From an uncultured Acidimicrobiia bacterium (GTDB lineage Bacteria; Actinomycetota; Acidimicrobiia; Acidimicrobiales; CAIXPF01), in contig CAIXPF010000060.1 in the NCBI GenBank assembly GCA_903921205.1, forward strand, positions 1 to 34,380: a stretch of DNA of 34,380 nt, written 5' to 3'. This document shows positions 5,799 to 23,789 of this stretch, piece by piece (positions within the stretch are counted from its first letter, which is position 1; each line of letters begins with the position of its first letter). Both the position numbers and the translations under genes were made by a program. The notes under the pieces are model-generated. The model made no database searches. It was not told the DNA's origin and saw nothing but the letters and a program-made list of their open reading frames with translations.

Positions 5799-5829
5799 CG
5801 ATTCGGTGCGGCGAATCGACGGCGAATCG
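5799..5829. repeat. CGAWTCG heptamer cluster, locus A
   Basis: Three heptamers occur here: CGATTCG at 5799-5805, CGAATCG at 5812-5818 and CGAATCG at 5823-5829. The last two are 11 bp apart start to start and form a CGAWTCG-N4-CGAWTCG pair. The cluster lies in the 207-nt gap between the convergent tex and two-domain CoA-transferase genes. It belongs to a family with copies at 11276-11337, 19126-19143 and 23724-23789. Confidence 0.75.
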
Positions 5830-5887
5830 GCCCGACGTGTTTGCCGCCGTCCGGGACCGGGGAGCCTCGGCCGAGAATCCGGCGCCG

Positions 5888-5913
5888 ACGGTGGGTCAGC
5901 GCGCGCCCACCGT
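5888..5913. terminator. Hairpin between convergent genes
   Basis: Perfect 8-bp arms ACGGTGGG (5888-5895) and CCCACCGT (5906-5913) enclose a 10-nt loop between the 3' ends of tex and the two-domain CoA-transferase gene. There is no T tract, as is common in high-GC actinobacteria. It is probably a bidirectional terminator. Confidence 0.5.
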
Positions 5914-5951
5914 GGTCAACCGGGGCGCCGGGGGCGCTCGGCCAGACGCGC

Positions 5952-8432
5952 TCAGCCGAGGGCGCCGGCGGCGCGCAACGCGGCCACCCGTTCCGGGTCG
6001 AGCCCCAACAGGCCGGTCAGCACCTCGTCGGTGTGCTGACCGAGCGTCGGCGCGGCCGATCGCACCCGGGTGTCCTCGCCGTCGATGACCCACGGCACCC
6101 CGGCGTGGGTCCGCACCCCGACCTCGCGGTGGGCCAGCCGGGTCAGGAACCCCCGGGCGAACAGGTGCGGGTCGTCGGCGAGATCACGCGGTGACAGCGT
6201 CGGGAACGCCGCCACCCCTGCAGCCTGCAGCGCCTCGGTGGCCGCCCACCGGGTTCGCTCGAGGCACCAGGCGGCGACCGTGGCGTCGAGGTCGTCCTCG
6301 TTGGCCTTGCGATCCGTTGCGGTGGTGAACCGGGCGTCGGTGGCCAGACCCTGGGTGCCGTCGGGGTCGAGGACCTCGCACAGGGCCAGCCAGTCGGTGT
6401 CGTCGGTGACGGCGATGGTCACGAAGTCACCCGCCTCCTCGCCCGGTTCGCCGTCGGGGGCGCAGCGGTAACAGTTGTGCGGCGCCCATTGGGCATGGCG
6501 GTTGCCGATGCGCTCCGCCTCGGTGCCCTGCAGCAGCCAGGCCATCCACCCCTCGAGGCCGTTGACGGCGGTGGCCTCCCACAGCGACGTGTCGAGGCGG
6601 GCGGTACGGCCGGTCCGGCGCCGGGTGACCAGGGCGGCCACCACCCCCCAGGCGCAGGCGATGCCGGCGGCGGGGTCCCCGAAGGCGATGCCGAGCTCCC
6701 GCGGGCCGTCGCCCGGTTCGTACCCGGTGAGCGAGGCGATGCCCGACAGCGGCGAGGTCGTCGGCCCGTAGCCCATGTAGGCCCGCAGCGAGCCGGTCTG
6801 TCCGTACCCGGCGATCGAGGCCACGATCACGTCGGGGTTGATCGCCCGCAGCTCGTCCACGCCGAGGCCGAGCCGCTCCATGACCCCGACGGCGAAGTTG
6901 TCGATGACCACATCGGCCTCGGCCACCAGGCGGCGGGCCAGGTCGAGCCCTTCGGGGCAGCCCAGATCGAGCGAGATGGAACGCTTGCCCTGGCTCCACT
7001 GGTTGAAGTAGCCGCTGGTGTTCACGGTCGGCTCGACGCCGGGCGGGTGGAACGGCAGTCGACGCCCCAGGCACAGCCGGGCCGGGTTCTCCACCTTGAT
7101 CACGTCGGCCCCGAGGTGGGCCAGCTGCATCGTGCAGAACGGCCCGGCCCACACCCAGGTGAAGTCGAGCACGCGGACGCCCTCGAGGGGCCGGGGTGCC
7201 GATCCGGCCGCGTTCCCTCCGAGGCCGCCCGGCCCGTCGGCCCCTGCCCCGTCGGCCCCGGCCGCCCCGGCACCCGGGGTGCGGGCATCCCAGCCGGGTG
7301 TCGGTGAACCGGCGAGGGCCGGTGCGGGGGAGCGCAACGCCCACGGCGAGGCGGTCTGCTCGCCGGAGCTCTGCCACACGAAGGGGGCCCCGGGTAGCTC
7401 GACACGGCCGAGGTCGGGTTGGTCGACGGTGGCGAAGAATCCCCGCTCGCGCAGATGGGGCTGCTGGGACAGATCGTGCATGGAGAACACCGGGGCGAAG
7501 GCGATGCGCCGCTGCTGTCCCTGATGCCAGAGGTACTCGACGGTATGTTCCTCGGTGAAGGATTCGACCAGGGCGAAGAGGGCCTCGGCGGTCTCGTTGC
7601 GGCCGGCTGCGGTGGAGAAGATCTCCTCGGTCGCCCATTCGGGCGAGCCCATGAACTCGACCAGGCGCGCCCACTGGTCCTCCTCCACGCAGACCAGGAA
7701 CACCAACCCGTCCCGGCAGCGGAAGATGCCCCACGGGTTGAGGGTGCGGATGCCCATCCGGTCGGGGTTCCAGCCCGGATAGGTCCAGGCGATGAACGCC
7801 GCCTCGAGCATCGAGGTGACATGGGCCTGCATCGAGTAGTCGATGTGGGCGCCGATCCCGGTGCGCTGGGCCCGGTCGACGCAGGCCAGCGCGCAGATCG
7901 CCGCGCCGGTGGCCGACTGCAACGAGGCCAGGTCGACCGGCGGGCGCAGCGGCGGCAGGTCCGGCCGTTCGGAGGCACCCGGTGCCAACCACGCCCAGCC
8001 GCCGCCGTGCACCACCCCGATCTCGGTCGCCCGGTACCCGGCATACGGCCCGGTATGACCGAACGGGCTCAGCGAGCACACCACCAGGTCGGGCCGGGTG
8101 GCGCGCCAACGATCGGGGTCGATGCCCCACGCCGGCCACTGCGCCGGCGGCAACTCGTGTACCACCAGGTCGGCGCCGGCCACCAGGGCATCGAGGTCGA
8201 CCGCGCCGGCGCGGACCGAGGTCTTGTTGGTGTTCAACGCCACGAACAGCCCGGCGGTGTCGGGATCGCCCTCCTGGCCGGGCCGCCACGGTCCCCGGCG
8301 ACGGACCGGGTCGCCGTCGGGGCCTTCCACCTTGACCACCTCGGCGCCGAGGTCGGCGAGGAGCTTGGCCGCGTACCCGGCCGCCACCCCGCCACCGATC
8401 TCCACCACACGGATACCTTCGAGCCCATGCAT
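5952..8432 (-). CDS. Two-domain (tandem) family III CoA-transferase
   Basis: This 826-residue protein carries two CaiB/BaiF domains in one chain. The first (about 1-365) begins GLEGIRVVEIGGGVAAGY with LADLGAEVVKVEGPDGDP. An Ala/Gly/Pro-rich linker covers about 366-412. The second (about 413-826) begins PLEGVRVLDFTWVWAGP with LAHLGADVIKVENP and SQGKRSISLDL. ATG 8432 fits the domain start, and a TACCGT box 9 nt upstream supports a leaderless start there. As I align them, the position of the catalytic Asp is Glu137 in the first half (GYRATEIG) and Gly in the second (YMGYGPTTSPLSG), so the usual aspartyl-CoA chemistry is in doubt. Tandem family members are known. The gene is divergent from the MFS gene at 8518. 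The substrate is unknown. Confidence 0.88.
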   Translation of the reverse strand: MHGLEGIRVVEIGGGVAAGYAAKLLADLGAEVVKVEGPDGDPVRRRGPWRPGQEGDPDTAGLFVALNTNKTSVRAGAVDLDALVAGADLVVHELPPAQWPAWGIDPDRWRATRPDLVVCSLSPFGHTGPYAGYRATEIGVVHGGGWAWLAPGASERPDLPPLRPPVDLASLQSATGAAICALACVDRAQRTGIGAHIDYSMQAHVTSMLEAAFIAWTYPGWNPDRMGIRTLNPWGIFRCRDGLVFLVCVEEDQWARLVEFMGSPEWATEEIFSTAAGRNETAEALFALVESFTEEHTVEYLWHQGQQRRIAFAPVFSMHDLSQQPHLRERGFFATVDQPDLGRVELPGAPFVWQSSGEQTASPWALRSPAPALAGSPTPGWDARTPGAGAAGADGAGADGPGGLGGNAAGSAPRPLEGVRVLDFTWVWAGPFCTMQLAHLGADVIKVENPARLCLGRRLPFHPPGVEPTVNTSGYFNQWSQGKRSISLDLGCPEGLDLARRLVAEADVVIDNFAVGVMERLGLGVDELRAINPDVIVASIAGYGQTGSLRAYMGYGPTTSPLSGIASLTGYEPGDGPRELGIAFGDPAAGIACAWGVVAALVTRRRTGRTARLDTSLWEATAVNGLEGWMAWLLQGTEAERIGNRHAQWAPHNCYRCAPDGEPGEEAGDFVTIAVTDDTDWLALCEVLDPDGTQGLATDARFTTATDRKANEDDLDATVAAWCLERTRWAATEALQAAGVAAFPTLSPRDLADDPHLFARGFLTRLAHREVGVRTHAGVPWVIDGEDTRVRSAAPTLGQHTDEVLTGLLGLDPERVAALRAAGALG

Positions 8433-8441
8433 CGGCCCGGG

Positions 8442-8447
8442 ACGGTA
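8442..8447 (-). promoter_or_regulatory. Leaderless-type -10 box (two-domain CoA-transferase)
   Basis: On the minus strand TACCGT ends 9 nt before ATG 8432 and no Shine-Dalgarno is present. This spacing puts the transcription start at or next to the start codon. Confidence 0.5.
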
Positions 8448-8503
8448 GCGCACCGCGGCGCCCCGACGGTTCCGTTCCCGGCGCAGGTCGGCACCGGGCG
8501 CGT

Positions 8504-8509
8504 TACGCT
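8504..8509 (+). promoter_or_regulatory. Leaderless-type -10 box (MFS exporter)
   Basis: TACGCT ends 8 nt before ATG 8518 with no Shine-Dalgarno, which supports this start. It lies back to back with the minus-strand box at 8442-8447. Confidence 0.5.
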
Positions 8510-8517
8510 CCCGCGCC

Positions 8518-9855
8518 ATGACCTCGGCCCGCGACGATGTGGCGACCGGTGACGCGACGCCCGTTGCGATGCCCGACCTGGCGACCGGCGACGTGGCCAT
8601 GCCGGGCGGTATCGAGCCGGGAGCGGCGCGGCCGGCCGGTTTCGGCCACGCCTTCGCCTCGCTGCGCTGCCGGCACTTCCCGAAGGTCTATGCCACCGGC
8701 TGGATCTGGAGCATCGCCCGGTGGGGGCTCGGTTTCCTCGGGGCGTTCGTCGCCAACGACCTGACCGGTTCGCCCCGCCTGGTGCAGTTGACCGGCACCA
8801 TGATGTGGGGGCCGTTGCTGTTCGCCGGCCTGATCGGCGGCGCGGTCTCGGACCGTTTCGATCGGCGCCGCACGGTGCTGGTGCAGCTCGGGGTGCTCGT
8901 CCCGCTGACCGCGATGATGGGTGCCCTGGCCCTCACCGACGCCCTGCGGGTGTGGATGATCTACCCGTTCATGCTGGTGGTGGGCCTGGGCTGGATCGTG
9001 GACATGACCGCACGGCGGGCGCTCATCTACGACCTCGTCGGCGCCGAGCAGATCAACGGGGCGATGGCGCTCGAGATGCTCAGCTCGTCCGCCGGCCTGC
9101 TGCTCGGCGCGCTCATCGGCGGCACGGTCATCCAGACGCTGGGTGTGGGTGCCGCCTACCTGGTCATCGCCGCCGGGCTGCTGGTGGCCATGCTGATCAT
9201 GTGGCGGGTGCCCGCGCCCGGCGTCGCCCCTGCGAGCCTCGCGGCGCCGGTCGAGAAGCCGCCGCCGTTCCTGCGGGCCGTCGCCGAGGGCTTCCGGGCG
9301 TTGCCGGCCAACCTGGCGCTGGTGTCGATCCTCGGGGTGACCGTCTTCGTGGACTTCTTCCACTTCTCCTACTTCCCCATCGTGCAGGTGATGGGCAAGC
9401 GGGTCGGGGCGTCCCCGGCGATGATCGGCCTGATCTCGGCCGCAGCGGGTGCCGGGATGATGGCCGGGTCGTTGTGGGTGGCGATCCGCACCCCGCACCG
9501 TGGCAAGGCCTACGTCGGCGGGTCCCTGGTCGCCTGCGTGTTGCTCATCGGCTTCGCCACCCTGCCCTCGTACTGGATGATGGTGGCCTTCGCCGGGGCT
9601 GCCGGTGCGGCCCTGGGCCTGTTCGGCGCGACGCAGACAGCGTTGGCCATCACCACCACCACGCCCGAGATGCGGGGCCGGGCCATGGGCCTGCTCAGCA
9701 TGGCCATCGGGGCGTTGCCGGTGGGCATGTACGCCCTCGGGGAACTGGCCCAGGCGGTGGGTGCCCCCACGGCGCTGGTGATCTTCAACGTGGCGGGGTT
9801 CGTCGGACTGCTGGTCTGGCTGCGGGTGCGTCCCGAGGTGCTGTCGGTCCGCTGA
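8518..9855 (+). CDS. MFS transporter, EntS/MFS_3-like exporter
   Basis: This 445-residue membrane protein belongs to the major facilitator superfamily. About 45 polar residues precede the first membrane segment (WSIARWGLGFLGAFVAN), which is longer than usual, so a later start is possible. The -10 box 8 nt before ATG 8518 favours the long form. Roughly twelve hydrophobic helices follow. The loop motif GGAVSDRFDRRRTV sits between helices 2 and 3, as in the MFS_3/enterobactin exporter group, and ITTTTPEMRGRAMGLL matches the second-half loop. It is expected to move a small molecule across the membrane by proton antiport. Substrate and direction cannot be told. It is followed after 108 nt by an amidohydrolase gene on the same strand. 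Confidence 0.88.
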   Translation: MTSARDDVATGDATPVAMPDLATGDVAMPGGIEPGAARPAGFGHAFASLRCRHFPKVYATGWIWSIARWGLGFLGAFVANDLTGSPRLVQLTGTMMWGPLLFAGLIGGAVSDRFDRRRTVLVQLGVLVPLTAMMGALALTDALRVWMIYPFMLVVGLGWIVDMTARRALIYDLVGAEQINGAMALEMLSSSAGLLLGALIGGTVIQTLGVGAAYLVIAAGLLVAMLIMWRVPAPGVAPASLAAPVEKPPPFLRAVAEGFRALPANLALVSILGVTVFVDFFHFSYFPIVQVMGKRVGASPAMIGLISAAAGAGMMAGSLWVAIRTPHRGKAYVGGSLVACVLLIGFATLPSYWMMVAFAGAAGAALGLFGATQTALAITTTTPEMRGRAMGLLSMAIGALPVGMYALGELAQAVGAPTALVIFNVAGFVGLLVWLRVRPEVLSVR

Positions 9856-9898
9856 GCCCGTCGGTCGCTGCGGTTCGAGCCTGCCGCCGGACAGCGCA

Positions 9899-9938
9899 TA
9901 CCATGCTCCTGCACACAGACCTGATCGGACCGTCAGGT
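9899..9938 (+). promoter_or_regulatory. Possible promoter and operator for the amidohydrolase gene
   Basis: TACCAT (9899-9904) resembles a -10 box. Just downstream, ACCTGA (9919-9924) and TCAGGT (9933-9938) form a 20-bp inverted repeat with an 8-nt spacer, where a TetR-type repressor could bind. The start codon at 9964 has its own Shine-Dalgarno, AAGGAG. The operator role is inference. Confidence 0.35.
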
Positions 9939-9963
9939 TCGCGGGAGACGAAGGAGCGCGGCG

Positions 9964-11154
9964 ATGACCATGACCGCACCGCAGCAGGGCGACATCCTCG
10001 CCGGGCTGAAGATCATCGACACCGACACCCACCTGTCGGAACCGGCCGACCTGTGGACCTCGCGTGCCCCGGCGCGTTACCGCGACGAGGTGCCCCGCCA
10101 GGTCGAGCTCAACGGCCGCCGGCGCTGGGTCATCGGCGGTGACATCGACCTCGGCGGGGTCGGTGCCGCCAGCGTGGTCGATCCGGCCGGCGAGAAGATC
10201 TACGGCGTCGGCTGGCTGAAGCTGTCCGTCGAGGAGGTCCACGCCGCCTCGTCGCAGATCCCCGCCCGCCTGAAGCTGATGGACGAGGTCGGGGTGTACG
10301 CCCAGATCGTGTACCCGAACCTCGCCGGGTTCGGGAACCAGGCCTTCATGCGGGTCCAGGACAGCGAGCTGCGCCTGCTGTGCGCGCAGATCTACAACGA
10401 CGCCGGGGCCGAGCACCAGGAGCAGTCCGGTGAGCGGATCTTCACCATGGCGCTGGTGCCGTGGTGGGACATCGACGCGTCGGTGGCCGAGGTGCGGCGT
10501 TGCGCGGCGATGGGCATGCGCGGCGTGGTGATGTGCTCCAACCCCGAGGACGCCGGCATGCCCGATCTGGGCCAGCCGGTGTGGGCGCCGTTCTTCGAGG
10601 CGTGCGAGGAGCTGGGCATGCCGATCAACTTCCACATCGGGGCCAGCTCCGGGGAGATGGACTTCTTCGGCAAGACCCCGTGGAAGTCCCACGGCGGCGA
10701 GACCCGCCTGGCGCTCGGGTCGGCCAACCTGTTCCTGGGCAACGCCCGGGTGATCGGCAACCTGATCTACTCCGGTGTGCTCGAGCGCTATCCGACGCAG
10801 CGGTTCGTGTCGGTCGAGTCGGGTCTCGGCTGGATCCCGTTCTATCTCGACGCCCTGGACTACGAGATGTCCGAGACGATGCCCAACGACTCCAAGAAGC
10901 TGTCGCTGACGCCGTCGGAGTACTACAAGCGGCAGTTCTACAGCTGCTTCTGGTTCGAGAAGACCGGCCTGAAGACCAACATCGAGGCGCTCGGCGCCGA
11001 GCGGGTGCTCTTCGAGACCGACTTCCCGCACCCGACCTGCCTCTATCCCGGTGGTGGCGACCACATCCGTTCGTCGCTGTCGGGCCTCGACGACTACACC
11101 CGTCGCCGGGTGCTGCAGGACAACGCCGCCGACCTGTACCGCATCGGCCTCTGA
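9964..11154 (+). CDS. Amidohydrolase family 2 (ACMSD-like) metal-dependent hydrolase or decarboxylase
   Basis: The 396-residue protein fits the Amidohydro_2/ACMSD-like TIM-barrel family, whose members hydrolyse or decarboxylate small, often aromatic-derived acids using a divalent metal. DTDTHLSEP near residues 19-27 holds the N-terminal Asp-x-His metal motif. INFHIGASSGEMDFFG supplies the central His, and FETDFPHPTCLYPGG near 350 supplies the late catalytic Asp. ATG 9964 is preceded by AAGGAG at good spacing. A second member of the family lies at 23833-25020; the two are clearly different sequences. The reaction is not identifiable from sequence alone. Confidence 0.88.
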   Translation: MTMTAPQQGDILAGLKIIDTDTHLSEPADLWTSRAPARYRDEVPRQVELNGRRRWVIGGDIDLGGVGAASVVDPAGEKIYGVGWLKLSVEEVHAASSQIPARLKLMDEVGVYAQIVYPNLAGFGNQAFMRVQDSELRLLCAQIYNDAGAEHQEQSGERIFTMALVPWWDIDASVAEVRRCAAMGMRGVVMCSNPEDAGMPDLGQPVWAPFFEACEELGMPINFHIGASSGEMDFFGKTPWKSHGGETRLALGSANLFLGNARVIGNLIYSGVLERYPTQRFVSVESGLGWIPFYLDALDYEMSETMPNDSKKLSLTPSEYYKRQFYSCFWFEKTGLKTNIEALGAERVLFETDFPHPTCLYPGGGDHIRSSLSGLDDYTRRRVLQDNAADLYRIGL

Positions 11155-11159
11155 CCCCG

Positions 11160-11188
11160 GGCGGACACCGCTCGCCCCGGTGTCCGCC
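11160..11188 (+). terminator. Hairpin terminator after the amidohydrolase gene
   Basis: Perfect 10-bp arms GGCGGACACC and GGTGTCCGCC enclose a 9-nt loop, starting 6 nt after the stop codon. No T tract follows. Confidence 0.7.
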
Positions 11189-11211
11189 GCCGGCGGACCC
11201 CGACCCTTCGA

Positions 11212-11239
11212 CGAGCCCGGCCCTCTGCGGCCGGGCTCG
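11212..11239. terminator. Second hairpin in the convergent gap
   Basis: Perfect 11-bp arms CGAGCCCGGCC (11212-11222) and GGCCGGGCTCG (11229-11239) enclose the 6-nt loop CTCTGC. It could end transcription from either the amidohydrolase or the nitroreductase side. Confidence 0.65.
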
Positions 11240-11275
11240 CTGCGTCCCCGGCCGTCGGCCCCGGGTGGAGCATGG

Positions 11276-11343
11276 CGAATCGGCACCGATTCGGCGTGAT
11301 GCCCCACGGGGTATCGCAGCGAATCGACGTCGATTCGCTGCGA
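11276..11343. repeat. CGAWTCG heptamer cluster, locus B, with 30-bp perfect palindrome
   Basis: There are two inverted heptamer pairs, each with 11-bp start-to-start spacing. They are CGAATCG at 11276 with CGATTCG at 11287, and CGAATCG at 11320 with CGATTCG at 11331. The second pair sits inside a perfect 30-bp palindrome at 11314-11343, centred on ACGT at 11327-11330 with no loop. The cluster lies 11 bp before the stop codon of the nitroreductase gene, in a convergent gap. A palindrome without a loop suits a protein-binding dyad as well as a terminator. Confidence 0.8.
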
Positions 11344-11354
11344 CGGTGTCGAAT

Positions 11355-12245
11355 TCAGTCGAGGCGAAAGCCTTTTCGGCGCAGAAACGCGGCCAGGTCG
11401 GCACGCTCCGTGGCGGAAACCTGGCGGGCCTTGTCCAGCGACCACCCGTAGAAGTCGGCGGTCCCGAACCGCTCACGGTACTGCTGGCGGTCGGGCGGGA
11501 TGGAGAACACCGCATCGCGCCGACGGTCGTAGCCGTCGAGTTCGTCGACGAACGCCGCATCGTCGTAGCGGTCACGGTGCACGGTCAGCGCCGGTGGGAG
11601 TCGAAGCACCTGGTGGCCGGTGTCGCCACGGTGCCCGATGCACAGCCCCGATATCGGGAACACCAGGTCGGGCAGCTCGCAGATCTCGCTCACCGCATCG
11701 ATGTGGTTACGGACCACCGAGATCGGACAGGTCCCCAGGCCCATCGACTCGGCCGCCCAGACGAAGCTCGACAGGTGCAGGGCGGCGTCGACCGCCGGGT
11801 TGAGCACGGCGTCGAGGTGGTCGTTGCCGAACTCGATGCCGTGCAGCTCGCAGATGCGGCGGATCCGCCGCCCGTCGCCGCAGAACAGCAGGAACCGGGC
11901 GCACGAGCGGATCCACGGCATGTCCGGGATCAGGTCGGCGATGCGGCCCCGACGCTCGGGATCGTCCACGACGATGATCGCCACCTGCTGCAGGTCCGAC
12001 TTCGCCGGGGTCGACAGTGCCGCCGCGAGCAGGCGTTCCAGGGTCGCCTCGTCGACGGGTTCGTCGGTGAAGCGCCGGCAGATGCGGTGCCGCAGCATGG
12101 TCGCCACCGTCTCGGTCGGTGGCGCGTGCTGGGCGAAGTGCGGCGCCACACCGAACCGTGCCTCGATCAGCGCCGCGGTGTCGGGTCCGTTGCGCTCCGG
12201 TCCGCCGCTCGCCCGTTCACCGCTCGCCTGTCCGTCCGTCGACAT
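11355..12245 (-). CDS. Nitroreductase-family flavoenzyme
   Basis: This 296-residue protein is a nitroreductase-fold enzyme. The family binds FMN and uses NAD(P)H to reduce nitro groups, quinones or conjugated bonds, or works in reverse in dehydrogenations. The N-terminal FMN-phosphate motif is RHRICRRFTDEPV (about 52-64), followed by LLAAALSTPAKSDLQQ. The later segment ESMGLGTCPISVVRN matches the second flavin-contact region. The chain is longer than the usual 200 or so residues, with an N-terminal 45-residue lead and a C-terminal extension ending SATERADLAAFLRRKGF. ATG 12245 follows GAGAGGACGGGT and lies 10 nt after the stop of the isocitrate lyase-like gene. It is therefore the last gene of a three-gene operon starting at 14624. 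The substrate is unknown. Confidence 0.88.
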   Translation of the reverse strand: MSTDGQASGERASGGPERNGPDTAALIEARFGVAPHFAQHAPPTETVATMLRHRICRRFTDEPVDEATLERLLAAALSTPAKSDLQQVAIIVVDDPERRGRIADLIPDMPWIRSCARFLLFCGDGRRIRRICELHGIEFGNDHLDAVLNPAVDAALHLSSFVWAAESMGLGTCPISVVRNHIDAVSEICELPDLVFPISGLCIGHRGDTGHQVLRLPPALTVHRDRYDDAAFVDELDGYDRRRDAVFSIPPDRQQYRERFGTADFYGWSLDKARQVSATERADLAAFLRRKGFRLD

Positions 12246-12255
12246 ACCCGTCCTC

Positions 12256-15009: not shown

Positions 15010-15026
15010 CCCCGCCGCCTTCACCG

Positions 15027-15045
15027 GCCCGGTCGTCGACCGGGC
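15027..15045. terminator. Hairpin between repressor and MaoC-like gene
   Basis: Arms GCCCGGTC and GACCGGGC around a 3-nt loop (GTC) lie in the 66-nt gap between two convergent stop codons. Confidence 0.6.
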
Positions 15046-15075
15046 GGCCGGGCCCAGTCGGTCGGGGCTGCCGGA

Positions 15076-15480: not shown

Positions 15481-15482
15481 GA

Positions 15483-15929: not shown

Positions 15930-15940
15930 GGCAATACCGC

Positions 15941-16567: not shown

Positions 16568-16594
16568 CGTCGGTCAGTCAGCCCCGTTGTTCGA

Positions 16595-17017
16595 TCAGTC
16601 GGCAGGACGGAAGCGCACCACGGCGAACTGCTCGCCATCGGTACGTTCCTGCGGCTGGAAGTCGGCCACGACGGCCATGCCGATCCGCACGGCCTCGGGG
16701 TCGCAACCCACGATGTGGGTCAGGATACGCGGGCCTTCCTCGGTCTGGACGTAGGCCATGACGTAGGGGCACGCCGCAGCGAAGGGCGGGGCCTGGTTCT
16801 GGTGGGTGACGGTGAAGGTGTACACCGTGCCCCGGCCCGAGGCCACGATGTGCTCGAGGTCGCCCGACAGGCAGGTGGCACAGACGCCGCGCGGCTTGTG
16901 CTGCACCGTCGAGCAGGCCCGGCAGCGCTGCAGCACCAGCTCACCACGAGCGGCGCCCTCCCAGTACCCCCGGGTCTCCCAGGAGGCGTGGACCTTCGGA
17001 TGGGTGAGATCGGCCAT
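16595..17017 (-). CDS. DUF35 zinc-ribbon/OB-fold acyl-CoA-associated protein
   Basis: The 140-residue protein has the DUF35 layout. An N-terminal helix (SWETRGYWEGAARGEL) precedes a zinc ribbon with Cys 32, 35, 46 and 49 (RCRACSTVQHKPRGVCATC). An OB fold follows (SGRGTVYTFTVTHQNQ ... PYVMAYVQTEEGPRILTHIVG). DUF35 proteins partner with SCP2-thiolase-like enzymes; in steroid degradation a DUF35 domain and Ltp2 form an aldolase complex. Here the ATG overlaps the stop of the SCP2-like gene by one base (TGATG), which strongly suggests the two products bind each other. An Ltp2-type retro-aldolase partner role is inference. Confidence 0.9.
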   Translation of the reverse strand: MADLTHPKVHASWETRGYWEGAARGELVLQRCRACSTVQHKPRGVCATCLSGDLEHIVASGRGTVYTFTVTHQNQAPPFAAACPYVMAYVQTEEGPRILTHIVGCDPEAVRIGMAVVADFQPQERTDGEQFAVVRFRPAD

Positions 17018-18177
17018 CACTCGACTCCCAGGATCAGCGTGGCGCCGGAGTGCGCCACCCCCAATGTGCCACCGGTGCCGTGGGCCACCGCCAGCTTGGC
17101 GTTGGCGACCTGACGGTCGCCGCACTCGCCGCGCAGCTGCTTGGTGGCCTCGATCGCCAGGAAGATGCCCCGCATGCCCGGGTGGTTGGAGGACAGGCCG
17201 CCGCCGTCGAGGTTGACCGGCAGCTCGCCGCCGAGGCCGATACGGCCGCCGGAGACGAAGTCGCCGCCCTCGCCGACCTTGCAGAACCCCAGGTTCTCCA
17301 GCGTGGAGAGCACGGTGATGGTGAACGAGTCGTAGACCATCGCCAGGTCGATGTCGGAGCGCTGCACCCCGGCCATGCCGAAGGCCCGCTCGCCGGCCTG
17401 GCGGGCACCCATGGTGAGCAGGTCGGGCGAGCCGATCTCCTGGTGGCACACCGATTCGCCGCACCCGAGGATCTGTACCGGCTTGCGGCGCAGATCCTTG
17501 GCCCGCTCGGTGGAGGTGACGACGATGGCGCCGCCGCCGTCGCTGATGATGCAGCAGTCGAGCAGGTGCAGCGGGGCGCTGATCAGCCGGGACGACAGCA
17601 CGTCGTCGACCGTGATCGGCGTGCGCATCTTCGCCGCCGGGTTCATCGAGGCGTGGCGCCGCATGGTGACGGCGATCTCGGCGAGCTGCTCGGGCTTGGT
17701 TCCGTAGCGCTGCATGTGCAGCTGGGCGACCATGGCGTAGCTGCCGACGGTGGTCATGCCGTAGGGCGACTGGAACGAGTCCCACGGGTTGCGGCTGCCG
17801 TGGCCCATGCCGGTGCCGATGGCGACGGAGTGGCTGGCCGCGGTCGAGCCGTACAGCACGATCGCCACCTGGCACAGCCCGGCGTGGATGGCCGCCGCAG
17901 CGTGGGTCACGTGGGCCAGGAACGACGAGCCACCGATGTTGGTGCCGTCGATGTAGTTCGGCTTGAGGTTCAGGTACTCGGCGAGTTCGACGATGCCCAT
18001 GGCCCCCATGGTCATCGAGGCGCCGAACAGGCCGTCGACGTCGTCGATGGTCAGCCCGGCGTCGTCGAGGGCGCCCTTGGCCGACTCGGCCATGATCTGG
18101 AACTCGGTCTTGTCGGGCGCCCAGCGGGTCGGGTGCTCGTAGACGCCGGCGATGGAGCAGGCTCCGGACAGGCTCAT
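17017..18177 (-). CDS. SCP2-thiolase/Ltp2-like protein (non-thiolytic, possible retro-aldolase)
   Basis: The 386-residue protein has the thiolase fold of the SCP-x/Ltp group. Marks are TNIGGSSFLAHVTHAAAAI (about 79-97), AMVYDSFTITVLSTLENLGF (about 279-298), LDGGGLSSNHPGMRG (about 323-337, His332) and AHGTGGTLGVAHSG (about 365-378). The Cys nucleophile of true thiolases is missing at the GGSS segment, and the second Cys of the C-terminal C-x-G motif is also absent, so acyl transfer to CoA is unlikely. Ltp2-type relatives are retro-aldolases that use Tyr and a DUF35 partner. Tyr282 is in the conserved YDSFTITVL motif and the DUF35 gene follows directly. The start overlaps the upstream hydrolase-like gene by 4 bases (ATGA). 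The aldolase role is inference. Confidence 0.85.
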   Translation of the reverse strand: MSLSGACSIAGVYEHPTRWAPDKTEFQIMAESAKGALDDAGLTIDDVDGLFGASMTMGAMGIVELAEYLNLKPNYIDGTNIGGSSFLAHVTHAAAAIHAGLCQVAIVLYGSTAASHSVAIGTGMGHGSRNPWDSFQSPYGMTTVGSYAMVAQLHMQRYGTKPEQLAEIAVTMRRHASMNPAAKMRTPITVDDVLSSRLISAPLHLLDCCIISDGGGAIVVTSTERAKDLRRKPVQILGCGESVCHQEIGSPDLLTMGARQAGERAFGMAGVQRSDIDLAMVYDSFTITVLSTLENLGFCKVGEGGDFVSGGRIGLGGELPVNLDGGGLSSNHPGMRGIFLAIEATKQLRGECGDRQVANAKLAVAHGTGGTLGVAHSGATLILGVE

Positions 18178-18992
18178 CGGGTCACCTCGGTGGACGTGGC
18201 GGCGGCATCGACGATCTCGGCGAGCGCCGCAGGGGCTTCGATCACACCGTGCCGGCCGGCGCCGGCGAGCGTCGCCACCGTGGCGTTCGGCAGCTCGGCG
18301 GCGAGGGCCTCGGCGGTGGCGCGGGCGGCGGCGTCCTCGTGCTCGCCGACCACGACGGTGACCGGGCAGGTGACGGCGCCGAGACGGCCTCGGCCGTCCC
18401 ACGCCTGCTGGGCGAGACGGTCGCCCAGGGTGGCCCGGGGGTCGGTACGGACCCATTCGGCGAAGGCCTTCTGGAAGACCTCCTTGGCGGTGTCGGGCGC
18501 ATAGCCGGTGTTGTCGAAGTTCCGACGGGCCTTGCCGCTGGTGATGCGGCGTAGCTCGTCGACGACGGCGTCGAGCCCGTCGAAGTGGGCGGCAGCACCC
18601 CCGACCAGCACCAGGGCCTTGGGCCAGGCCGGATCGGCGATGGCGGCGGCGAGGGCGACGGCGGCACCGAGGCCCTCACCGACCAGCACCGGCCGACCGA
18701 GGCCGAACCCGGAGGCGAGGCCGCGCAGCTGGGCGACCATGGCGTCCACCGAGCCGGCGCTGTCGAGACTGCCCGAACGGCCGTGACCGGGTCGGTCGAA
18801 GGCCAACGGGCTGTGCGACGAGGCGAGGGCGTCGAGCAACGCGCCGAAGCTGTTGCCGTTGTCGCCGGCCTCGTGCAGGCAGATGACCACCTCGCCCTGC
18901 GTCGTCGCGGGTGGATGGCCCGGAAGGGTGGTGGGTCCACGATGATGGACCAGGGTCGCCACACCGTCGACCGAGAGATACTTCTGGGGCAC
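18174..18992 (-). CDS. Alpha/beta-hydrolase fold protein lacking the Ser nucleophile
   Basis: The 272-residue protein has the alpha/beta-hydrolase fold: VVICLHEAGDNGNSFG (oxyanion region), PLAFDRPGHGRSG, and a C-terminal AGAGRHGVIEAP with the expected catalytic His. The nucleophile elbow, normally G-x-S-x-G, reads G105-E-G107-L-G109 within PVLVGEGLGAA, so Gly replaces the catalytic Ser. Ordinary ester or thioester hydrolysis is therefore unlikely. It may be a lyase, a cofactor-independent enzyme or an acyl-binding partner. GTG 18992 is chosen because a good promoter ends 6 nt upstream; a TTG 12 codons earlier lies inside the -35. It is the first gene of a six-gene operon, overlapping the SCP2-like gene by 4 bases. 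Confidence 0.83.
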   Translation of the reverse strand: MPQKYLSVDGVATLVHHRGPTTLPGHPPATTQGEVVICLHEAGDNGNSFGALLDALASSHSPLAFDRPGHGRSGSLDSAGSVDAMVAQLRGLASGFGLGRPVLVGEGLGAAVALAAAIADPAWPKALVLVGGAAAHFDGLDAVVDELRRITSGKARRNFDNTGYAPDTAKEVFQKAFAEWVRTDPRATLGDRLAQQAWDGRGRLGAVTCPVTVVVGEHEDAAARATAEALAAELPNATVATLAGAGRHGVIEAPAALAEIVDAAATSTEVTR

Positions 18993-18998
18993 CCGCGG

Positions 18999-19028
18999 AC
19001 GGTAACGGTGACTTGACGCCCACGTCAA
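18999..19028 (-). promoter_or_regulatory. Promoter of the six-gene acyl-CoA operon
   Basis: On the minus strand a TTGACG -35 (19023-19028), an 18-nt spacer and a TACCGT -10 (18999-19004) lead to GTG 18992 only 6 nt later. This is the best promoter match in the window and implies a leaderless mRNA. Confidence 0.68.
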
Positions 19029-19125
19029 AGAGGCCGATGGGGGCTATCTCTCCAGGCTATGGCGCGGCCGTAGCTATCGCTGGAGGAGGGAGGTGGGGTG
19101 GGGTTGGTGTCCGACTCCCTCGGAG

Positions 19126-19143
19126 CGATTCGACGTCGATTCG
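19126..19143. repeat. CGAWTCG heptamer pair, locus C
   Basis: CGATTCG at 19126 and again at 19137 form a direct pair with ACGT between, at 11-bp spacing. A related ATTCGGATTCGCCG follows to about 19161. The pair lies in the 262-nt gap between the acyl-CoA dehydrogenase stop and the operon promoter. Confidence 0.7.
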
Positions 19144-19184
19144 CCGCAATTCGGATTCGCCGAAACCGTCGACTTCGCCGGTCG

Positions 19185-19213
19185 GGCCGGGTCGGGCCCG
19201 GCGGGGCCCGGCC
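19185..19213 (-). terminator. GC-rich hairpin after the acyl-CoA dehydrogenase gene
   Basis: Arms GGCCGGG (19185-19191) and CCCGGCC (19207-19213) enclose a 15-nt GC-rich loop, about 40 nt past the acyl-CoA dehydrogenase stop. Several registers of pairing are possible. Confidence 0.45.
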
Positions 19214-19254
19214 GGCAGGGTCGAGCCGAACCGGTCCCACCGACTCGTCGGTGG

Positions 19255-20436
19255 TCAGTGTTCGCCCTTGCGGGCCTTGCTCCAGGGGATGTCGCGGTCG
19301 ACGCGGGGTTCGCTGGGCAGGCCGAGGACCCGCTCGCCCAGGATGTTGCGCTGGATCTCGTCGGTGCCACCGCGGATCGACATCGACGGTCCGGTCAGGA
19401 ACTCGACGTGGCCCTCATGGTCGGCCAGCATGCCCTCGGCCCCCCGGCTGTCCTTGTCGAGGTAGGCCCGGCCCTGGAACGAGAAGGTCTTGTGCACCTT
19501 CGCCCCCGATCCGGCAGGCCCCGGGTTGCGTGACGCACTGGCCCGGTCCGCGGTCCAGCCGGCTGCGGCGTCGCGGGCGTGGATCGTCATGGCCCGCTGG
19601 CGGGCCACCGGGCTGCGCAGGGCGTCGCGGCCGGCGAGATCACGCAGCCAACCGGGCGTGCGCACGCCCTTGATGCCGCCGTCGCCACCGCCCCGGTTGG
19701 TGCCGGCCGCGGCCCGCTCGTGGGCCAGCACGGTCATTGCCACCTTCCAGCCTGCACCGACGTCGCCGATCCGCCAGGCGTCGGGCACCCGGGCGCCGCT
19801 GAGGAACACCTCGGAGAAGTGGCCGTCGCCGTTCATCTGCACCAACGGCCGGACCTCGACCCCGGGCGCCTCCATGTCCACGGCGAACATGGTGAGCCCG
19901 GCGTGCTTGGGCACCTCGGGGTCGGTCCGGGCCAGGCACAGGCCCCAACGGGCCCACACCGCGCGGCTGGTCCACACCTTCTGGCCCTCGAGCGTCCATT
20001 CGTCACCGTCACGGGTGGCCCGCAGCGCCAGGTTGGCCAGGTCGGAGCCGGCCTCCGGCTCGGAGAACATCTGGCACCAGATCTCGGCCCCGGACGCAAT
20101 GGTCGGCAGCCAGCGCTGCTGCTGCTCGTCGGTGCCGTGGGCCAGCAAGGCCGGGCCGCACATGCCGAGGCCGATCATGTAGGCGTAGAGGTCGGGCACG
20201 GAGAAATCGCGCAGCACGCGGTTGATCAGCGCCACCTCCTCGGGGTCGGCATCACGCCCGCCGAACGCCTTGGGCCACGACGGCAGGGCCCATCCGCCTT
20301 CGACGGTGGACGCCAGATACGCACGGGCCGGCTCGAGGTCGTCGCTGCCGGCGCCCATCGTGGTCATGCGTTCGTCGGCCCGGCGGGGCGTCAGGATCTG
20401 GGCGAGTGCGTTGCGGATCTCATCCTCGGTGATCAC
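19255..20436 (-). CDS. Acyl-CoA dehydrogenase
   Basis: The 393-residue flavoprotein is an acyl-CoA dehydrogenase, which makes a 2,3-enoyl-CoA using FAD and passes electrons to ETF. Marks are the Trp-containing N-domain (WALPSWPKAFGGRDADPEE), the substrate/FAD loop WCQMFSEPEAGSDLANL, WTLEGQKVWTSRAVWARWG, FSEVFLSGARVPDAWRIG, and the C-terminal IRGGTDEIQRNILGERVLGLP. GTG 20436 is chosen because TACCGT lies 7 nt upstream; a longer frame exists but would overlap the divergent gene's start. Two features fit the acyl-CoA dehydrogenases of side-chain degradation: the TDEIQRN ending and the nearby thiolase-like/DUF35/MaoC operon. Confidence 0.92.
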   Translation of the reverse strand: MITEDEIRNALAQILTPRRADERMTTMGAGSDDLEPARAYLASTVEGGWALPSWPKAFGGRDADPEEVALINRVLRDFSVPDLYAYMIGLGMCGPALLAHGTDEQQQRWLPTIASGAEIWCQMFSEPEAGSDLANLALRATRDGDEWTLEGQKVWTSRAVWARWGLCLARTDPEVPKHAGLTMFAVDMEAPGVEVRPLVQMNGDGHFSEVFLSGARVPDAWRIGDVGAGWKVAMTVLAHERAAAGTNRGGGDGGIKGVRTPGWLRDLAGRDALRSPVARQRAMTIHARDAAAGWTADRASASRNPGPAGSGAKVHKTFSFQGRAYLDKDSRGAEGMLADHEGHVEFLTGPSMSIRGGTDEIQRNILGERVLGLPSEPRVDRDIPWSKARKGEH

Positions 20437-20443
20437 CGCGGCG

Positions 20444-20479
20444 ACGGTAGCCGCGCCGCTCGCCACGCGCCGATAGCGT
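20444..20479. promoter_or_regulatory. Back-to-back leaderless promoters
   Basis: TACCGT on the minus strand (20444-20449) serves GTG 20436, and TAGCGT on the plus strand (20474-20479) serves ATG 20486. They leave 7 and 6 nt respectively before the start codons. The two starts are only 49 nt apart, so the promoters must overlap and may compete. Confidence 0.55.
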
Positions 20480-20485
20480 GCGGCG

Positions 20486-21172
20486 ATGGAGCTGATCGTG
20501 GCCCCCACGCCCGCCGCTGCGGCTCGGGCCCTCGCCGGACGTCTCACCGTGCTGGCCCGTCAGGCCATGGGTCGGCGGGGGGTGTTCAACCTGGTGCTCG
20601 GTGCCGGACCGGGGTCGTCGCCGCTGTTCGAGGCGCTGGTGAACACCGAGATCTTCTGGGGCCGGGTGAACGTGTTCCAGCTCGACGAGGGCGTCCCCGG
20701 CGACGGCGCCCGCGCCCGCTCGGCAACGGTGCTGCTCGAGGAGTTGTCCGACCAGGTCGGCCTGCCACCCGGCCGGCTGCACGTGGTCGATCCCGTGGCC
20801 CCCGACCGGGACGCCGCGGCCCGGCGCTTCGCTGCGTCGCTGCCGGACCACGTCGACGTGGCGGTGCTCGGACTTGCCGCCGACGGCCGCCTCGCCGGCT
20901 GGCCCGTCGCGGCCGGGTCGGCCGACGACGGACTCGATGAGCTCGGCGGCGCGGCGGTGGCGATGGTCGGCCCTGCCGAGGACCGCCGGCTGACGCTGAC
21001 GCCGGTGGTGGTCAACCGCGCCGAACACCGCTTCGTGCTGGCGGTCGGCGCCGATTGCCGTGCCGCCCTCACGGCGCTCGCGGCCGGCGAGCCGGCGTCG
21101 TGGGCCGCCCGCCGGCTCGGCCCGGCCGTCGCCTACGCCGACCGCGCCGCCGCTGACGAGCAGGCCGAGTAA
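20486..21172 (+). CDS. 6-phosphogluconolactonase/glucosamine-6-phosphate isomerase-like protein with altered active site
   Basis: The 228-residue protein has the NagB/6-phosphogluconolactonase fold. LVLGAGPGSSPLFEAL stands for the sugar-phosphate loop, FWGRVNVFQLDEGVPGD for the W-x-x-V-x-F-x-x-D-E-R segment, and VAVLGLAADGRLAGWP for the G-x-G-x-D-G-H-x-A-S/F loop. In the last, the His that is catalytic in lactonases is Arg135, and DER reads DEG at 68-69-70 or so. These losses make normal lactonase or isomerase activity doubtful. ATG 20486 is supported by a -10 box 6 nt upstream. The gene stands alone on this strand, divergent from an acyl-CoA dehydrogenase, with no pentose phosphate genes around. 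It may be a sugar-phosphate-binding or sensing paralogue. Confidence 0.72.
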   Translation: MELIVAPTPAAAARALAGRLTVLARQAMGRRGVFNLVLGAGPGSSPLFEALVNTEIFWGRVNVFQLDEGVPGDGARARSATVLLEELSDQVGLPPGRLHVVDPVAPDRDAAARRFAASLPDHVDVAVLGLAADGRLAGWPVAAGSADDGLDELGGAAVAMVGPAEDRRLTLTPVVVNRAEHRFVLAVGADCRAALTALAAGEPASWAARRLGPAVAYADRAAADEQAE

Positions 21173-21177
21173 CCGGA

Positions 21178-21251
21178 GCTGTCCTACCCGCGCACCGCCC
21201 TGCGGGCGATCGCTGTCCTACCCACGCACCGCCCTGCGGGCGATCGCTGTC

Positions 21252-21279
<28 letters not shown>
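21178..21279. repeat. 34-bp tandem repeat, three copies, with hairpin in each
   Basis: Three units of exactly 34 bp (21178-21211, 21212-21245, 21246-21279) differ at only one or two positions. The last unit contains the final codons and stop of the acyl-CoA dehydrogenase gene at 21252, so the 3' end of that gene has been copied twice downstream. Each unit holds CGCCCTGCGGGCG, a 5-bp stem with a 3-nt loop, giving three serial hairpins between convergent genes. They may act as a terminator. Confidence 0.9.
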
Positions 21280-22430
<1,151 letters not shown>

Positions 22431-22442
22431 GCCAGCAGCGTG

Positions 22443-23699
22443 TCAGACCTTCGCCGTACTGGCCAACCGGGACCGCGACGGCAGCCCACCCAGCACCAGT
22501 GCCATGGCCAGGGCACACGCCGACAGCAGCATCGCCGGCAGGCTGTAGCCCCCGGAGGCACCGGCAGCGCTGCCCACCAGCAGCGGTCCGACCACGCCAC
22601 CGACCTCGCCGGCGGTGAAGTACAGGCCCCCGGCCACCGCCATGTTGGCTGCGCCCACGCCCGGGTCGTCCATCAGCAGCATCATGCCCAGCGGCAGCGC
22701 TGCGGCGCGGGTGATGCCCACCGCCACCAGCGCCACGAACACCGTGGCACCGTCGAGGTGGGGGACCAGCGCCACCCCGACGGCACCGAGCAGGTAGACG
22801 CCGAGGTAGATCGGCTTGCGGCGGGCCGGGGTCGCCAGCCGGGGTACGACCAGGGCCGAGGCGATCCCGACCAGGGTGGTGAGGGCCGCCAGGTCGGCCG
22901 CCTGCCCGGCGGTGCGGCCACCGGCGCGCAGCATCTCCACCAGCCAGTTGCCGATGCCGTGGTTGTACAGGAACGAGCCGAGCGCCAGGACCAGAACCAG
23001 CTGCACCGACTTCATGGCCAGCAGCTGCCGGCTCGTCGCCGTCGGCACCGCGTCCTGCAGCTCGTGCCGGGCGGCGTGGTCGTCCTCGGCGGTCGCGGCG
23101 GGCCCGGCGGCGGTCGTGGTCGGTACCGAGACGGGCGCCGTGGCCGAAACCAGCCACCACACCACGCCGGTCGACAGCGTGAACCCGGCATAGAGCAGCA
23201 TGGCGCCCCGCCACGAGCCGGTGAGCGGGATGGCGATGCTGTGCATGGCGAACAGGGCGATCATCGCCCCGACCGCCGGCGCGGTGCTGAACAACCCGAC
23301 GACCTTGCCCCGATCGGCCGGGGGGAACCAGGTGGCGATCAGCTTGGGGCCGCCGATGGAGATCAGCGGCCCGCCGAGCCCGAAGATGGCCACCGCCAGG
23401 TACAGCGTCCAGAACCCCTGGGCCCCGGCGCGGGCCGCCCCCGAGGCCGCCACCAGCACCGCGGTGGCCGTGACGGCCCGGCGCGCGCCGATACGGTCGA
23501 TGACGCGACCGCCGGGGATGGCGGAGAACAGGTACACCAGCTGCCAGGCGCCGAGGACCAGGCCCATCGCGGTGGTGGACAGGCCGAGGTCGGTACGGAT
23601 CTCGCCGACCACCGGGGCCATCGCCCCCGAGGTCAGCCCGAAGCCGGCATAGACCAGCCAGGCCGCGGCGAACAGGGTCCAGCGTCGGCGGTCGGTCAT
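22443..23699 (-). CDS. MFS transporter
   Basis: The 418-residue membrane protein is a twelve-helix major facilitator. It starts at ATG 23699 (MTDRRRWTLFAAAWLVYAGF). GGRVIDRIGARRAV is the loop 2-3 motif, FPPADRGKVVGLFSTAPAVG is in the central part of the first bundle, and a polar loop (about 205-235, rich in Ala, Thr and Asp) splits the two six-helix bundles. It resembles importers of small organic anions (CynX/nitrate-sialate-like branches), but the substrate cannot be assigned. The acyl-CoA dehydrogenase gene follows after 12 nt. Upstream, a 133-nt gap with CGAWTCG repeats separates it from the amidohydrolase gene. Confidence 0.88.
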   Translation of the reverse strand: MTDRRRWTLFAAAWLVYAGFGLTSGAMAPVVGEIRTDLGLSTTAMGLVLGAWQLVYLFSAIPGGRVIDRIGARRAVTATAVLVAASGAARAGAQGFWTLYLAVAIFGLGGPLISIGGPKLIATWFPPADRGKVVGLFSTAPAVGAMIALFAMHSIAIPLTGSWRGAMLLYAGFTLSTGVVWWLVSATAPVSVPTTTAAGPAATAEDDHAARHELQDAVPTATSRQLLAMKSVQLVLVLALGSFLYNHGIGNWLVEMLRAGGRTAGQAADLAALTTLVGIASALVVPRLATPARRKPIYLGVYLLGAVGVALVPHLDGATVFVALVAVGITRAAALPLGMMLLMDDPGVGAANMAVAGGLYFTAGEVGGVVGPLLVGSAAGASGGYSLPAMLLSACALAMALVLGGLPSRSRLASTAKV

Positions 23700-23723
23700 G
23701 CGGTCCGATGCCGCCCGTCGGCC

Positions 23724-23789
23724 CGATTCGCCGCCGATTCGCTGCGGCGACCCGGCGACAGGCCGTTGCACCGAATCGCCACCGATTCG
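23724..23789. repeat. CGAWTCG heptamer cluster, locus D (two pairs)
   Basis: CGATTCG at 23724 and 23735 make a direct pair with CCGC between. CGAATCG at 23772 and CGATTCG at 23783 make an inverted pair with CCAC between. Both pairs have 11-bp start-to-start spacing and are followed by GCTGCG, as at locus B. They lie in the gap between two same-strand genes, upstream of the MFS start, so a pure terminator role fits less well here. Confidence 0.78.

What the first reader, a model, noticed from the sequence alone, without database searches (positions are those of the whole stretch)
5799..23789. Dispersed intergenic element CGAWTCG-N4-CGAWTCG with fixed 11-bp phasing
Six heptamer pairs fall in four intergenic gaps. 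They start at 5812/5823, 11276/11287, 11320/11331, 19126/19137, 23724/23735 and 23772/23783. In every pair the two heptamers start exactly 11 bp apart, about one helical turn, whether inverted or direct. CGATTCG and CGAATCG are reverse complements differing only at the centre. Flanks are also shared (GC-rich, often GCTGCG after). This is too regular for chance base composition, and it is neither a CRISPR nor a known SOS box pattern. It may be a binding site for a dimeric or cooperative protein (nucleoid, regulator), or a REP-like short mobile repeat. I know of no named element with this pattern.
Basis: seen in the sequence. Interest (0 to 1): 0.75.

Follow-up and report, generated by a model that had tools for sequence, protein, structure and literature searches.

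The report
Strict paired DNA motif between genes
A few related high-GC actinobacteria carry up to about 120 paired copies of an unusually exact short DNA motif, one helix turn apart and mostly between genes, which looks like the docking site of a protein that is not yet identified.

Summary
All six pairs are in place; the genome holds 122 CGAWTCG-N4-CGAWTCG pairs, 0 for the reversed control. The unit is an 11-bp palindrome, RNCGAWTCGNY, repeated end to end at 11 bp: 215 of 228 heptamers in paired clusters obey the R/Y rule, against 65 of 138 isolated heptamers and 192 of 424 CGASTCG controls. Near-misses are rare: 175 exact, 11 one-mismatch pairs. Between two close species, heptamer bases changed at 6 of 258 aligned sites, flanks at 222 of 1228, so the unit is under constraint. 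Sites are gained and lost: window 23714-23826 is missing in two congeners. Inverted pairs carry covarying outer stems in four genomes; direct pairs mostly do not. The nine genomes with three or more pairs lack Y1 transposases; three with one or two pairs have them, which argues against RAYT-mobilised REPs. Carriers are scattered through one order; 0 of 221 genomes from other classes of the phylum match. Best reading: a strict, cooperative paired operator for an unidentified DNA-binding protein, perhaps marking gene boundaries. Neither protein nor function is shown.

The parts
5799..5805 (.). extra heptamer CGATTCG in the first cluster, starting 13 bp before the pair
5812..5829 (.). direct pair CGAATCG-ACGG-CGAATCG between convergent genes (Tex, ends 5744; CoA-transferase III, ends 5952)
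   Evidence: pair intact in G001
11276..11293 (.). inverted pair CGAATCG-GCAC-CGATTCG between convergent genes
   Evidence: heptamers intact in G001 while spacer and flanks differ; absent with most of the gap in G003
11320..11337 (.). inverted pair CGAATCG-ACGT-CGATTCG inside a hairpin-forming palindrome (about 11314-11343)
   Evidence: RNA fold -23.4 kcal/mol, z -4.7; G001 keeps the pairing with two G-T wobbles
19126..19143 (.). direct pair CGATTCG-ACGT-CGATTCG, folds no better than shuffles
   Evidence: intact in G001; G002 and G003 lack it at this place
23724..23741 (.). direct pair CGATTCG-CCGC-CGATTCG between two minus-strand genes
23772..23789 (.). inverted pair CGAATCG-CCAC-CGATTCG, hairpin-forming
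   Evidence: z -4.2
23714..23826 (.). 113-bp stretch holding both pairs, absent in congeners G001 and G002 (insertion or deletion)

Best explanation
The element is a double-stranded DNA binding site made of two or more copies of an 11-bp palindromic unit, RNCGAWTCGNY, laid end to end so that neighbouring units sit one helical turn apart on the same face. Shown: the unit, its exactness, the need for a partner unit, the 11-bp phase, conservation at orthologous places, and gain and loss. Inferred: a strictly sequence-specific protein (probably a dimer on each unit) binds two units cooperatively and hardly tolerates a mismatch. Also inferred, and weaker: because the sites are commonest per gap between convergent genes, often lie near stop codons and stand beside genes without an obvious common task, the complex acts as a general boundary or architecture mark (blocking read-through or organising the nucleoid) rather than as the operator of one regulon. 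Many inverted copies have in addition a palindromic outer stem, so their transcripts would form strong hairpins; this may be a second function of that class.
For: Unit rule: R at -2 and Y at +2 in 215 of 228 heptamers of paired clusters (27 of 27 of those in called coding sequence) against 52 of 106 coding singles, 13 of 32 intergenic singles, 6 of 9 in clusters without an 11-bp pair and 192 of 424 CGASTCG controls. The rule was first read from the same two genomes. In gaps other than 11 bp, pooled over seven genomes, 118 of 120 unit ends obey it, and 293 of 302 at 11 bp. One rule thus covers the spacer (NYRN) and the outer flanks. Nearest-neighbour spacing: 151 at 11 bp, 12 at 16, 6 at 13, 6 at 19, and 1, 2, 0 and 0 at 10, 12, 14 and 15. 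Runs of 3-4 units at exact 11-bp period. Exactness: 175 exact, 11 one-mismatch pairs over seven genome samples, the latter near the background at other spacings. Constraint between G000 and G001: heptamer (non-centre) 6 of 258 changed, spacer 17 of 84, flanks 222 of 1228, Fisher p 2e-13. Some orthologous places also hold pairs in the more distant G003. Polarity: same-letter pairs 118, AT 56, TA 1 of 175. Convergent gaps 37 loci for 253 gaps, others 68 for 978, p 2e-4 (with each gap counted once 36 against 65, p 3e-4); 31 of 46 tandem loci nearer the upstream stop, p 0.026.
Against: No binding protein was identified. Covarying outer stems in the inverted class point to a hairpin in RNA or single-stranded DNA, which a duplex-binding model does not need. 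Such exactness is unusual for transcription factors (general knowledge). The polarity is not uniform: in G002 21 of 33 pairs are AT. 22 of 105 intergenic loci are between divergent genes, which does not fit a pure gene-end function; the stop-codon bias is weak and reversed in G007 (3 of 8). 'No common task' rests on Pfam scans of ten window proteins and protein comparisons of neighbours, which did show a few groups shared between families: an acyl-CoA-dehydrogenase-like gene in G001, G002, G003 and G007 (name by likeness), a polymerase-like gene in G007 and G015 and one short match between G015 and G043. In G007 all 13 strict sites lie within 245 kb of a 4.58-Mb chromosome, at neither dnaA nor the dif-like site, unexplained. 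Most G001 stretches compared were picked because they hold pairs, which hides losses by point mutation.
Confidence: 0.5

Rival explanations
1. RNA (or single-stranded DNA) hairpin element: the pair is the apical part of a hairpin with lineage-specific outer stem, working as a bidirectional terminator or 3'-end stabiliser.
For: Inverted class: outer flanks pair more than expected in G000 (58 vs 39.8 pairs, 0 of 2000 permutations), G001 (66 vs 45.4, 0 of 2000), G002 (108 vs 91.9, p 0.003) and G003 (26 vs 17.3, p 0.04). 38 of 50 inverted loci and 26 of 81 direct loci have an outer stem, null about 8% per pair. Stems change together at corresponding places: L032/L138/L213 and L031/L149; L134 and L212, beside the same kind of gene, have different stems around the same core. 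Direct pairs of G015 also have paired arms, and copies in G007 and G048 show outer stems by eye. Convergent bias.
Against: Same-letter (direct) pairs are the majority (118 of 175); their flanks do not pair beyond permutation in G000, G001, G002, G003, G005 or G007 (p 0.16-0.98; in G007 the copies share one stem, so the test has little power), only in G015 (p 0.0005). The three direct pairs of the window fold no better than shuffles. No T-run: 0 of 78 tails hold TTTT; no terminator-like call at a site in window 5001-25000. No Rfam family at the elements searched. Runs of three units and the R/Y rule at unpaired units do not follow from a hairpin. 22 divergent loci. Covarying arms can also arise by template-switch correction of palindromes without selection (general knowledge).
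Confidence: 0.2
2. REP/BIME-like selfish palindromic repeat spread by a transposase.
For: Dispersed, mostly intergenic, clustered, lineage-specific outer stems, presence/absence between species.
Against: PF01797: 0 matches in the nine genomes with three or more pairs (G000-G003, G005, G007, G015, G043, G048); 13 of 59 genomes searched have one, among them G021, G032 and G046, which hold one or two pairs. No end tag; cores exact and constrained at orthologous places; copies within a genome mostly share little beyond the core. Only 7 viral stretches match one form of the pair.
Confidence: 0.15
3. Methylation-driven motif, like HIP1 in cyanobacteria: an orphan methyltransferase plus mismatch repair keeps an exact palindrome.
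For: Exact odd palindrome with W centre that contains GAWTC; few one-mismatch forms.
Against: Isolated heptamers do not follow the R/Y rule, and in the window only 4 of 17 heptamers lie outside the clusters, where about 6 are expected in all; the 11-bp pairing and the flank rule are not features of a methylase site. No methylase was searched for.
Confidence: 0.07
4. Operator of one response regulator of the OmpR/PhoB kind (PHO-box geometry).
For: 7-nt repeats with 4-nt gaps, 11-nt units, same-letter orientation commonest, extra units.
Against: Inverted AT pairs are about a third of all (56 of 175); sites between convergent genes; mixed neighbours; strictness. No response regulator was tested.
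Confidence: 0.08

Closest known systems
PHO box (PhoB/PhoP direct-repeat operator)
   Same: two 7-nt repeats separated by 4 nt, read as two 11-nt units, with varying number and organisation of units in Streptomyces (PMC4415409, passages seen)
   Different: here the heptamer is a palindrome with a W centre, inverted pairs occur, little degeneracy, many sites between convergent genes
pSM19035 parS / omega heptad arrays (ribbon-helix-helix ParB)
   Same: short repeats each bound by one dimer, in both orientations, low affinity for a single repeat, function only in arrays (PMC9499535, abstract and passages seen)
   Different: omega heptads are contiguous at 7 bp and not palindromic; here 11-bp palindromic units at dispersed chromosomal sites
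REP elements, GTAG and CGTC families
   Same: small palindromic intergenic repeats, dimers and clusters, varied stems (PMC3733652, abstract and passages seen)
   Different: no such tag, no Y1 transposase in the genomes rich in pairs, exact core; Actinobacteria is not a word of that paper's main text
HIP1 of cyanobacteria
   Same: an exact iterated palindrome (PMC4390886, abstract and section list seen)
   Different: HIP1 is a single high-frequency octamer; ours is paired, phased and mostly intergenic
DNA uptake sequences of Neisseria/Pasteurellaceae
   Same: short exact motif, sometimes as inverted pairs at terminators (recalled; only listing and abstract starts seen)
   Different: about 120 pairs per genome here, against hundreds to thousands of motifs there (abstract start of PMC2346458); isolated copies here do not follow the unit rule

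Membership tests
REP (GTAG/CGTC, RAYT-mobilised) | Y1/RAYT transposase in the genome | tested here: not met
   PF01797: 0 matches in the nine genomes with three or more pairs, most of them drafts; 13 of 59 genomes positive, including three (G021, G032, G046) with one or two pairs
REP (GTAG/CGTC, RAYT-mobilised) | GTAG or CGTC tag at one end | tested here: not met
   outward flank profile of G000 and G001 shows no tag beyond NYGCRA to position 12
REP (GTAG/CGTC, RAYT-mobilised) | short stem-loop | tested here: inconclusive
   inverted class yes, direct class mostly no
PHO-box-type operator | 7+4 nt repeats, 11-nt period | tested here: met
PHO-box-type operator | PhoB/PhoP consensus and Pho-regulon neighbours | tested here: inconclusive
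   the heptamer is CGAWTCG, unlike the PhoP consensus as recalled; window neighbours with Pfam matches are Tex, CoA-transferase, amidohydrolases, nitroreductase, acyl-CoA dehydrogenase and MFS; neighbours elsewhere were not scanned
PHO-box-type operator | bound by an OmpR-family response regulator | not tested
   no binding data; no regulator searched
Intrinsic terminator | GC hairpin followed by a T-run | tested here: not met
   0 of 78 tails of inverted hairpins with TTTT; none called at the window sites
Known structured RNA | match to an Rfam family | tested here: not met
   window at gathering scores: 0; four loci at E<=1: two matches, neither at an element
parS-like (ori-proximal) or ter sites | clustering at origin or terminus | tested here: not met
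   one genome only, G007: dnaA at 225, dif-like site at 2,320,404 (2 mismatches to a recalled consensus), strict sites at 1.28-1.53 Mb; the dif pattern found nothing in four other genomes and drafts could not be mapped
HIP1-type methylation motif | matching orphan methyltransferase | not tested
   not searched
CRISPR array | repeats of 20 nt or more with unique spacers of similar length beside cas genes | not tested
   no CRISPR or cas search was run; the repeats are 7-11 bp and dispersed

The most novel reading that the evidence does not exclude
A chromosome-wide punctuation system confined to scattered lineages of one actinobacterial order: a protein reads paired 11-bp palindromes with almost restriction-enzyme strictness and marks gene boundaries, and in its inverted form the same site also encodes an RNA hairpin, so that one element works at both the DNA and the RNA level.
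Probability: 0.2. Interest if true: 0.8.

Novelty: new variant of a known kind. Interest (0 to 1): 0.6.

Why it matters
Dispersed intergenic repeats are often degenerate and treated as selfish debris. This one has few near-misses, needs a partner one helical turn away, is conserved at orthologous places while flanks and spacers drift, and yet is gained and lost between close species. If a cognate protein exists, the paired unit is a ready bait for it and it would define a new global DNA-binding protein in a poorly studied group; if none exists, the exactness needs another cause, such as a mutational or repair drive.

Tried and rejected
Chance and base composition: rejected. CGASTCG controls: 0 and 1 pairs at 11 bp in the two samples, mixed W/S pairs 0 and 2. 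Origin or terminus marks: rejected for G007. The reversed-pattern control is weak because it breaks the CG content. Phage or virus origin: 7 viral stretches carry CGATTCGNCGTCGATTCG; I take this for about chance by a rough reckoning from recalled collection size. Y1 transposase: not in the nine pair-rich genomes, present in three with one or two pairs. Regulon by neighbours: one search compared 235 neighbour proteins from seven genomes; most groups are orthologues of close species, with an acyl-CoA-dehydrogenase-like group in G001, G002, G003 and G007 (element on the 5' side in two and the 3' side in two) and a polymerase-like group in G007 and G015; I could not make a regulon of these. Literature: heptamer letters, 30 of 2203 papers listed, none by title about such an element, none by title and abstract start about such an element in this group; one REP survey lists Acidimicrobium ferrooxidans in a table (passage seen). 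One search returned nothing.

Rows dropped or biased: G002, G003, G005 and G015 stretches, and most G001 stretches, were chosen around known pairs or homologous places, so loci per gap are inflated for all contexts. Ortholog test: 17 of 27 G000 loci had a G001 counterpart in hand, 9 did not and 1 was skipped for a short flank. Two further loci (L030) sought by homology both hold exact pairs in G001 with changed unit numbers, and the G003 stretches fetched for them hold no pair. In one search sets of fewer than three pairs and TA pairs were left out, and only runs of exactly two units were used. In one search repeated gaps within a cluster were counted once. The single or double matches in G014, G021, G032 and G046 were not looked at. 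Gene calls come from my own codon-usage caller, which can invent short genes.

Full report
Observation. The six pairs exist exactly as listed, in four gaps between called genes, with one further heptamer at 5799. The genome that holds the window (4.36 Mb, 208 contigs; 71% G+C in the sample) has 122 CGAWTCG-N4-CGAWTCG pairs and none for the reversed pattern. In 412 kb of it, heptamer pairs at distance 11 number 43; no other distance up to 60 exceeds 9.

Anatomy. Pooling clusters shows one rule. Each heptamer sits in an 11-bp palindrome, R N C G A W T C G N Y (first seen). In G000 and G001 the rule holds for 215 of 228 heptamers in paired clusters, but only for 65 of 138 isolated heptamers, 6 of 9 in clusters without an 11-bp pair and 192 of 424 CGASTCG controls, so isolated heptamers look like chance. 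Over seven genomes it holds for 118 of 120 unit ends at gaps other than 11 bp. Abutting units give the 11-bp phase and the NYRN spacer. Nearest-neighbour distances are 11 bp (151), 16 (12), 13 (6) and 19 (6), with 1, 2, 0 and 0 at 10, 12, 14 and 15. Runs of three and four units occur.

Exactness and polarity. Seven genome samples hold 175 exact pairs, 11 with a single mismatch and 12 with one in each heptamer, the last two close to the background at other distances. The W centre is not free: same-letter pairs 118, A..T 56, T..A 1; but G002 departs from this, with 21 of 33 A..T.

Selection and turnover. Against G001 (90-95% identical over the main aligned pieces), 24 runs at 17 orthologous loci show 6 changes in 258 heptamer positions outside the centre, 3 of 42 at the centre, 17 of 84 in the spacer and 222 of 1228 in the flanks. 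Most of those G001 stretches were picked for holding pairs. The window loci were not: four runs there are intact and two lie in a stretch that is missing in G001, and one outer position of the 5799 cluster holds a heptamer in G001 but not in G000. The two L030 loci, also sought by homology, both hold exact pairs in G001. Several loci are occupied in G003 too. Turnover is by whole pieces: 113 bp with two pairs (23714-23826) are absent in G001 and G002, and the gap around 11276-11337 is about 22 bp instead of 200 in G003. Array lengths change between species.

Two classes. Inverted pairs mostly carry an outer palindromic stem: 38 of 50 inverted loci against 26 of 81 direct loci; the null is about 8% per pair, somewhat more for the best of a cluster. 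Outer flanks of inverted pairs match their own partner better than other partners in G000 and G001 (0 of 2000 permutations each), G002 (p 0.003) and G003 (p 0.04), not significantly in the three pairs of G015; G005, with two, was left out. Direct pairs show it only in G015 (p 0.0005); in G007 the test has little power because the copies share one stem. Hairpins at corresponding places keep pairing through changes on both sides, and L134 and L212, beside the same kind of gene, have different stems around the same core. The three direct pairs of the window fold no better than shuffles. There is no T-run.

Place. Of 131 loci, 105 are intergenic (37 convergent, 46 tandem, 22 divergent), 22 in called coding sequence and 4 without two neighbours. 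Convergent gaps are enriched (37 loci for 253 gaps against 68 for 978, p 2e-4; 36 against 65 with each gap counted once, p 3e-4). Tandem loci lie nearer the upstream stop in 31 of 46 (p 0.026), not in G007 (3 of 8). Window neighbours have no obvious common task. Across families a few neighbour groups recur: an acyl-CoA-dehydrogenase-like gene in G001, G002, G003 and G007, a polymerase-like gene in G007 and G015, and one short match between G015 and G043; the element's side differs in the first.

Distribution. Of 59 genomes searched, the window's own included, 13 have a match: own 122; same genus 107, 112 and 16; same family 105 and 0; elsewhere in the order 15, 10, 5, 3, 2, 2, 1 and 1. Of the low-copy ones I looked at G048, where 3 of 4 loci are in called coding sequence, and G043, where none is. 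With the stricter pattern, 8 of 296 class genomes match, four of them once, two of these four outside the order. Among 246 phylum genomes only the window's own and one same-order genome match; 221 are of other classes and have none. In G007, a single-contig genome, all 13 strict sites lie between 1.28 and 1.53 Mb, away from dnaA (225) and from a dif-like site (2.32 Mb). I have no explanation for that.

Interpretation. A strict palindromic unit that counts only in pairs one turn apart, conserved while its spacer and flanks drift, is what a cooperative, dimeric, duplex-DNA-binding protein would leave. The geometry is that of a PHO box; the logic of weak single and strong array units is that of omega heptads. 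No protein was found, so this is inference. The hairpins of the inverted class are well supported but cannot be the common denominator. A RAYT-driven REP family is unlikely because the pair-rich genomes lack Y1 transposases, although gain and loss by whole pieces shows that copies do come and go somehow. A methylation- or repair-driven origin (as proposed for HIP1) was not tested and remains a minor rival.

Limits.

Noticed in passing
L176-L180 (G007 C1, five stretches between 1265001 and 1535000): All 13 strict pairs of this single-contig genome lie in one 245-kb region, neither at dnaA nor at the dif-like site; the 14 pairs in the stretches fetched are all direct.
   Followed up: partly
G001 and G007 intergenic samples: A second motif (CGCTGAC/GGGTCA words recurring at 8- and 16-bp intervals) shows up among the commonest repeated words between genes in both genomes.
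   Followed up: no
L191 10301-10395: Glycine riboswitch (RF00504, 70.8 bits), on the same strand as a large gene that I take for a glycine dehydrogenase (recall), in G048; the only pair of G048 outside called coding sequence lies on the 3' side of that gene.
   Followed up: no
window 5745-5798 against L151: G001 has about 370 extra bases downstream of tex just before the first cluster, with tandem GGTGGGTGGTCGGGGCC-like repeats.
   Followed up: no
L177 15560, L204 416: In two different families a pair lies next to a gene that looks like a DnaE2-type polymerase (name from recall; the match between the two proteins is).
   Followed up: no
L144 6464, L248 17173, L210 4704, L180 10074: An acyl-CoA-dehydrogenase-like gene stands beside a pair in G001, G002, G003 and G007, on its 5' side in two and its 3' side in two.
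   Followed up: no
window 19126-19143, L160 1038: The hydrolase-like gene that has the 19126 pair on its 5' side also has a pair on its 5' side in G001 and, in another genus, G005.
   Followed up: no
L026 11886-11930, L133 3082-3153: An orthologous array lies inside a called long reading frame in both G000 and G001, with changed unit number and centre letters; fusion, insertion or a wrong gene call was not decided.
   Followed up: no
G038: A relative without pairs is rich in Y1 transposase matches (27), many of them fragments.
   Followed up: no
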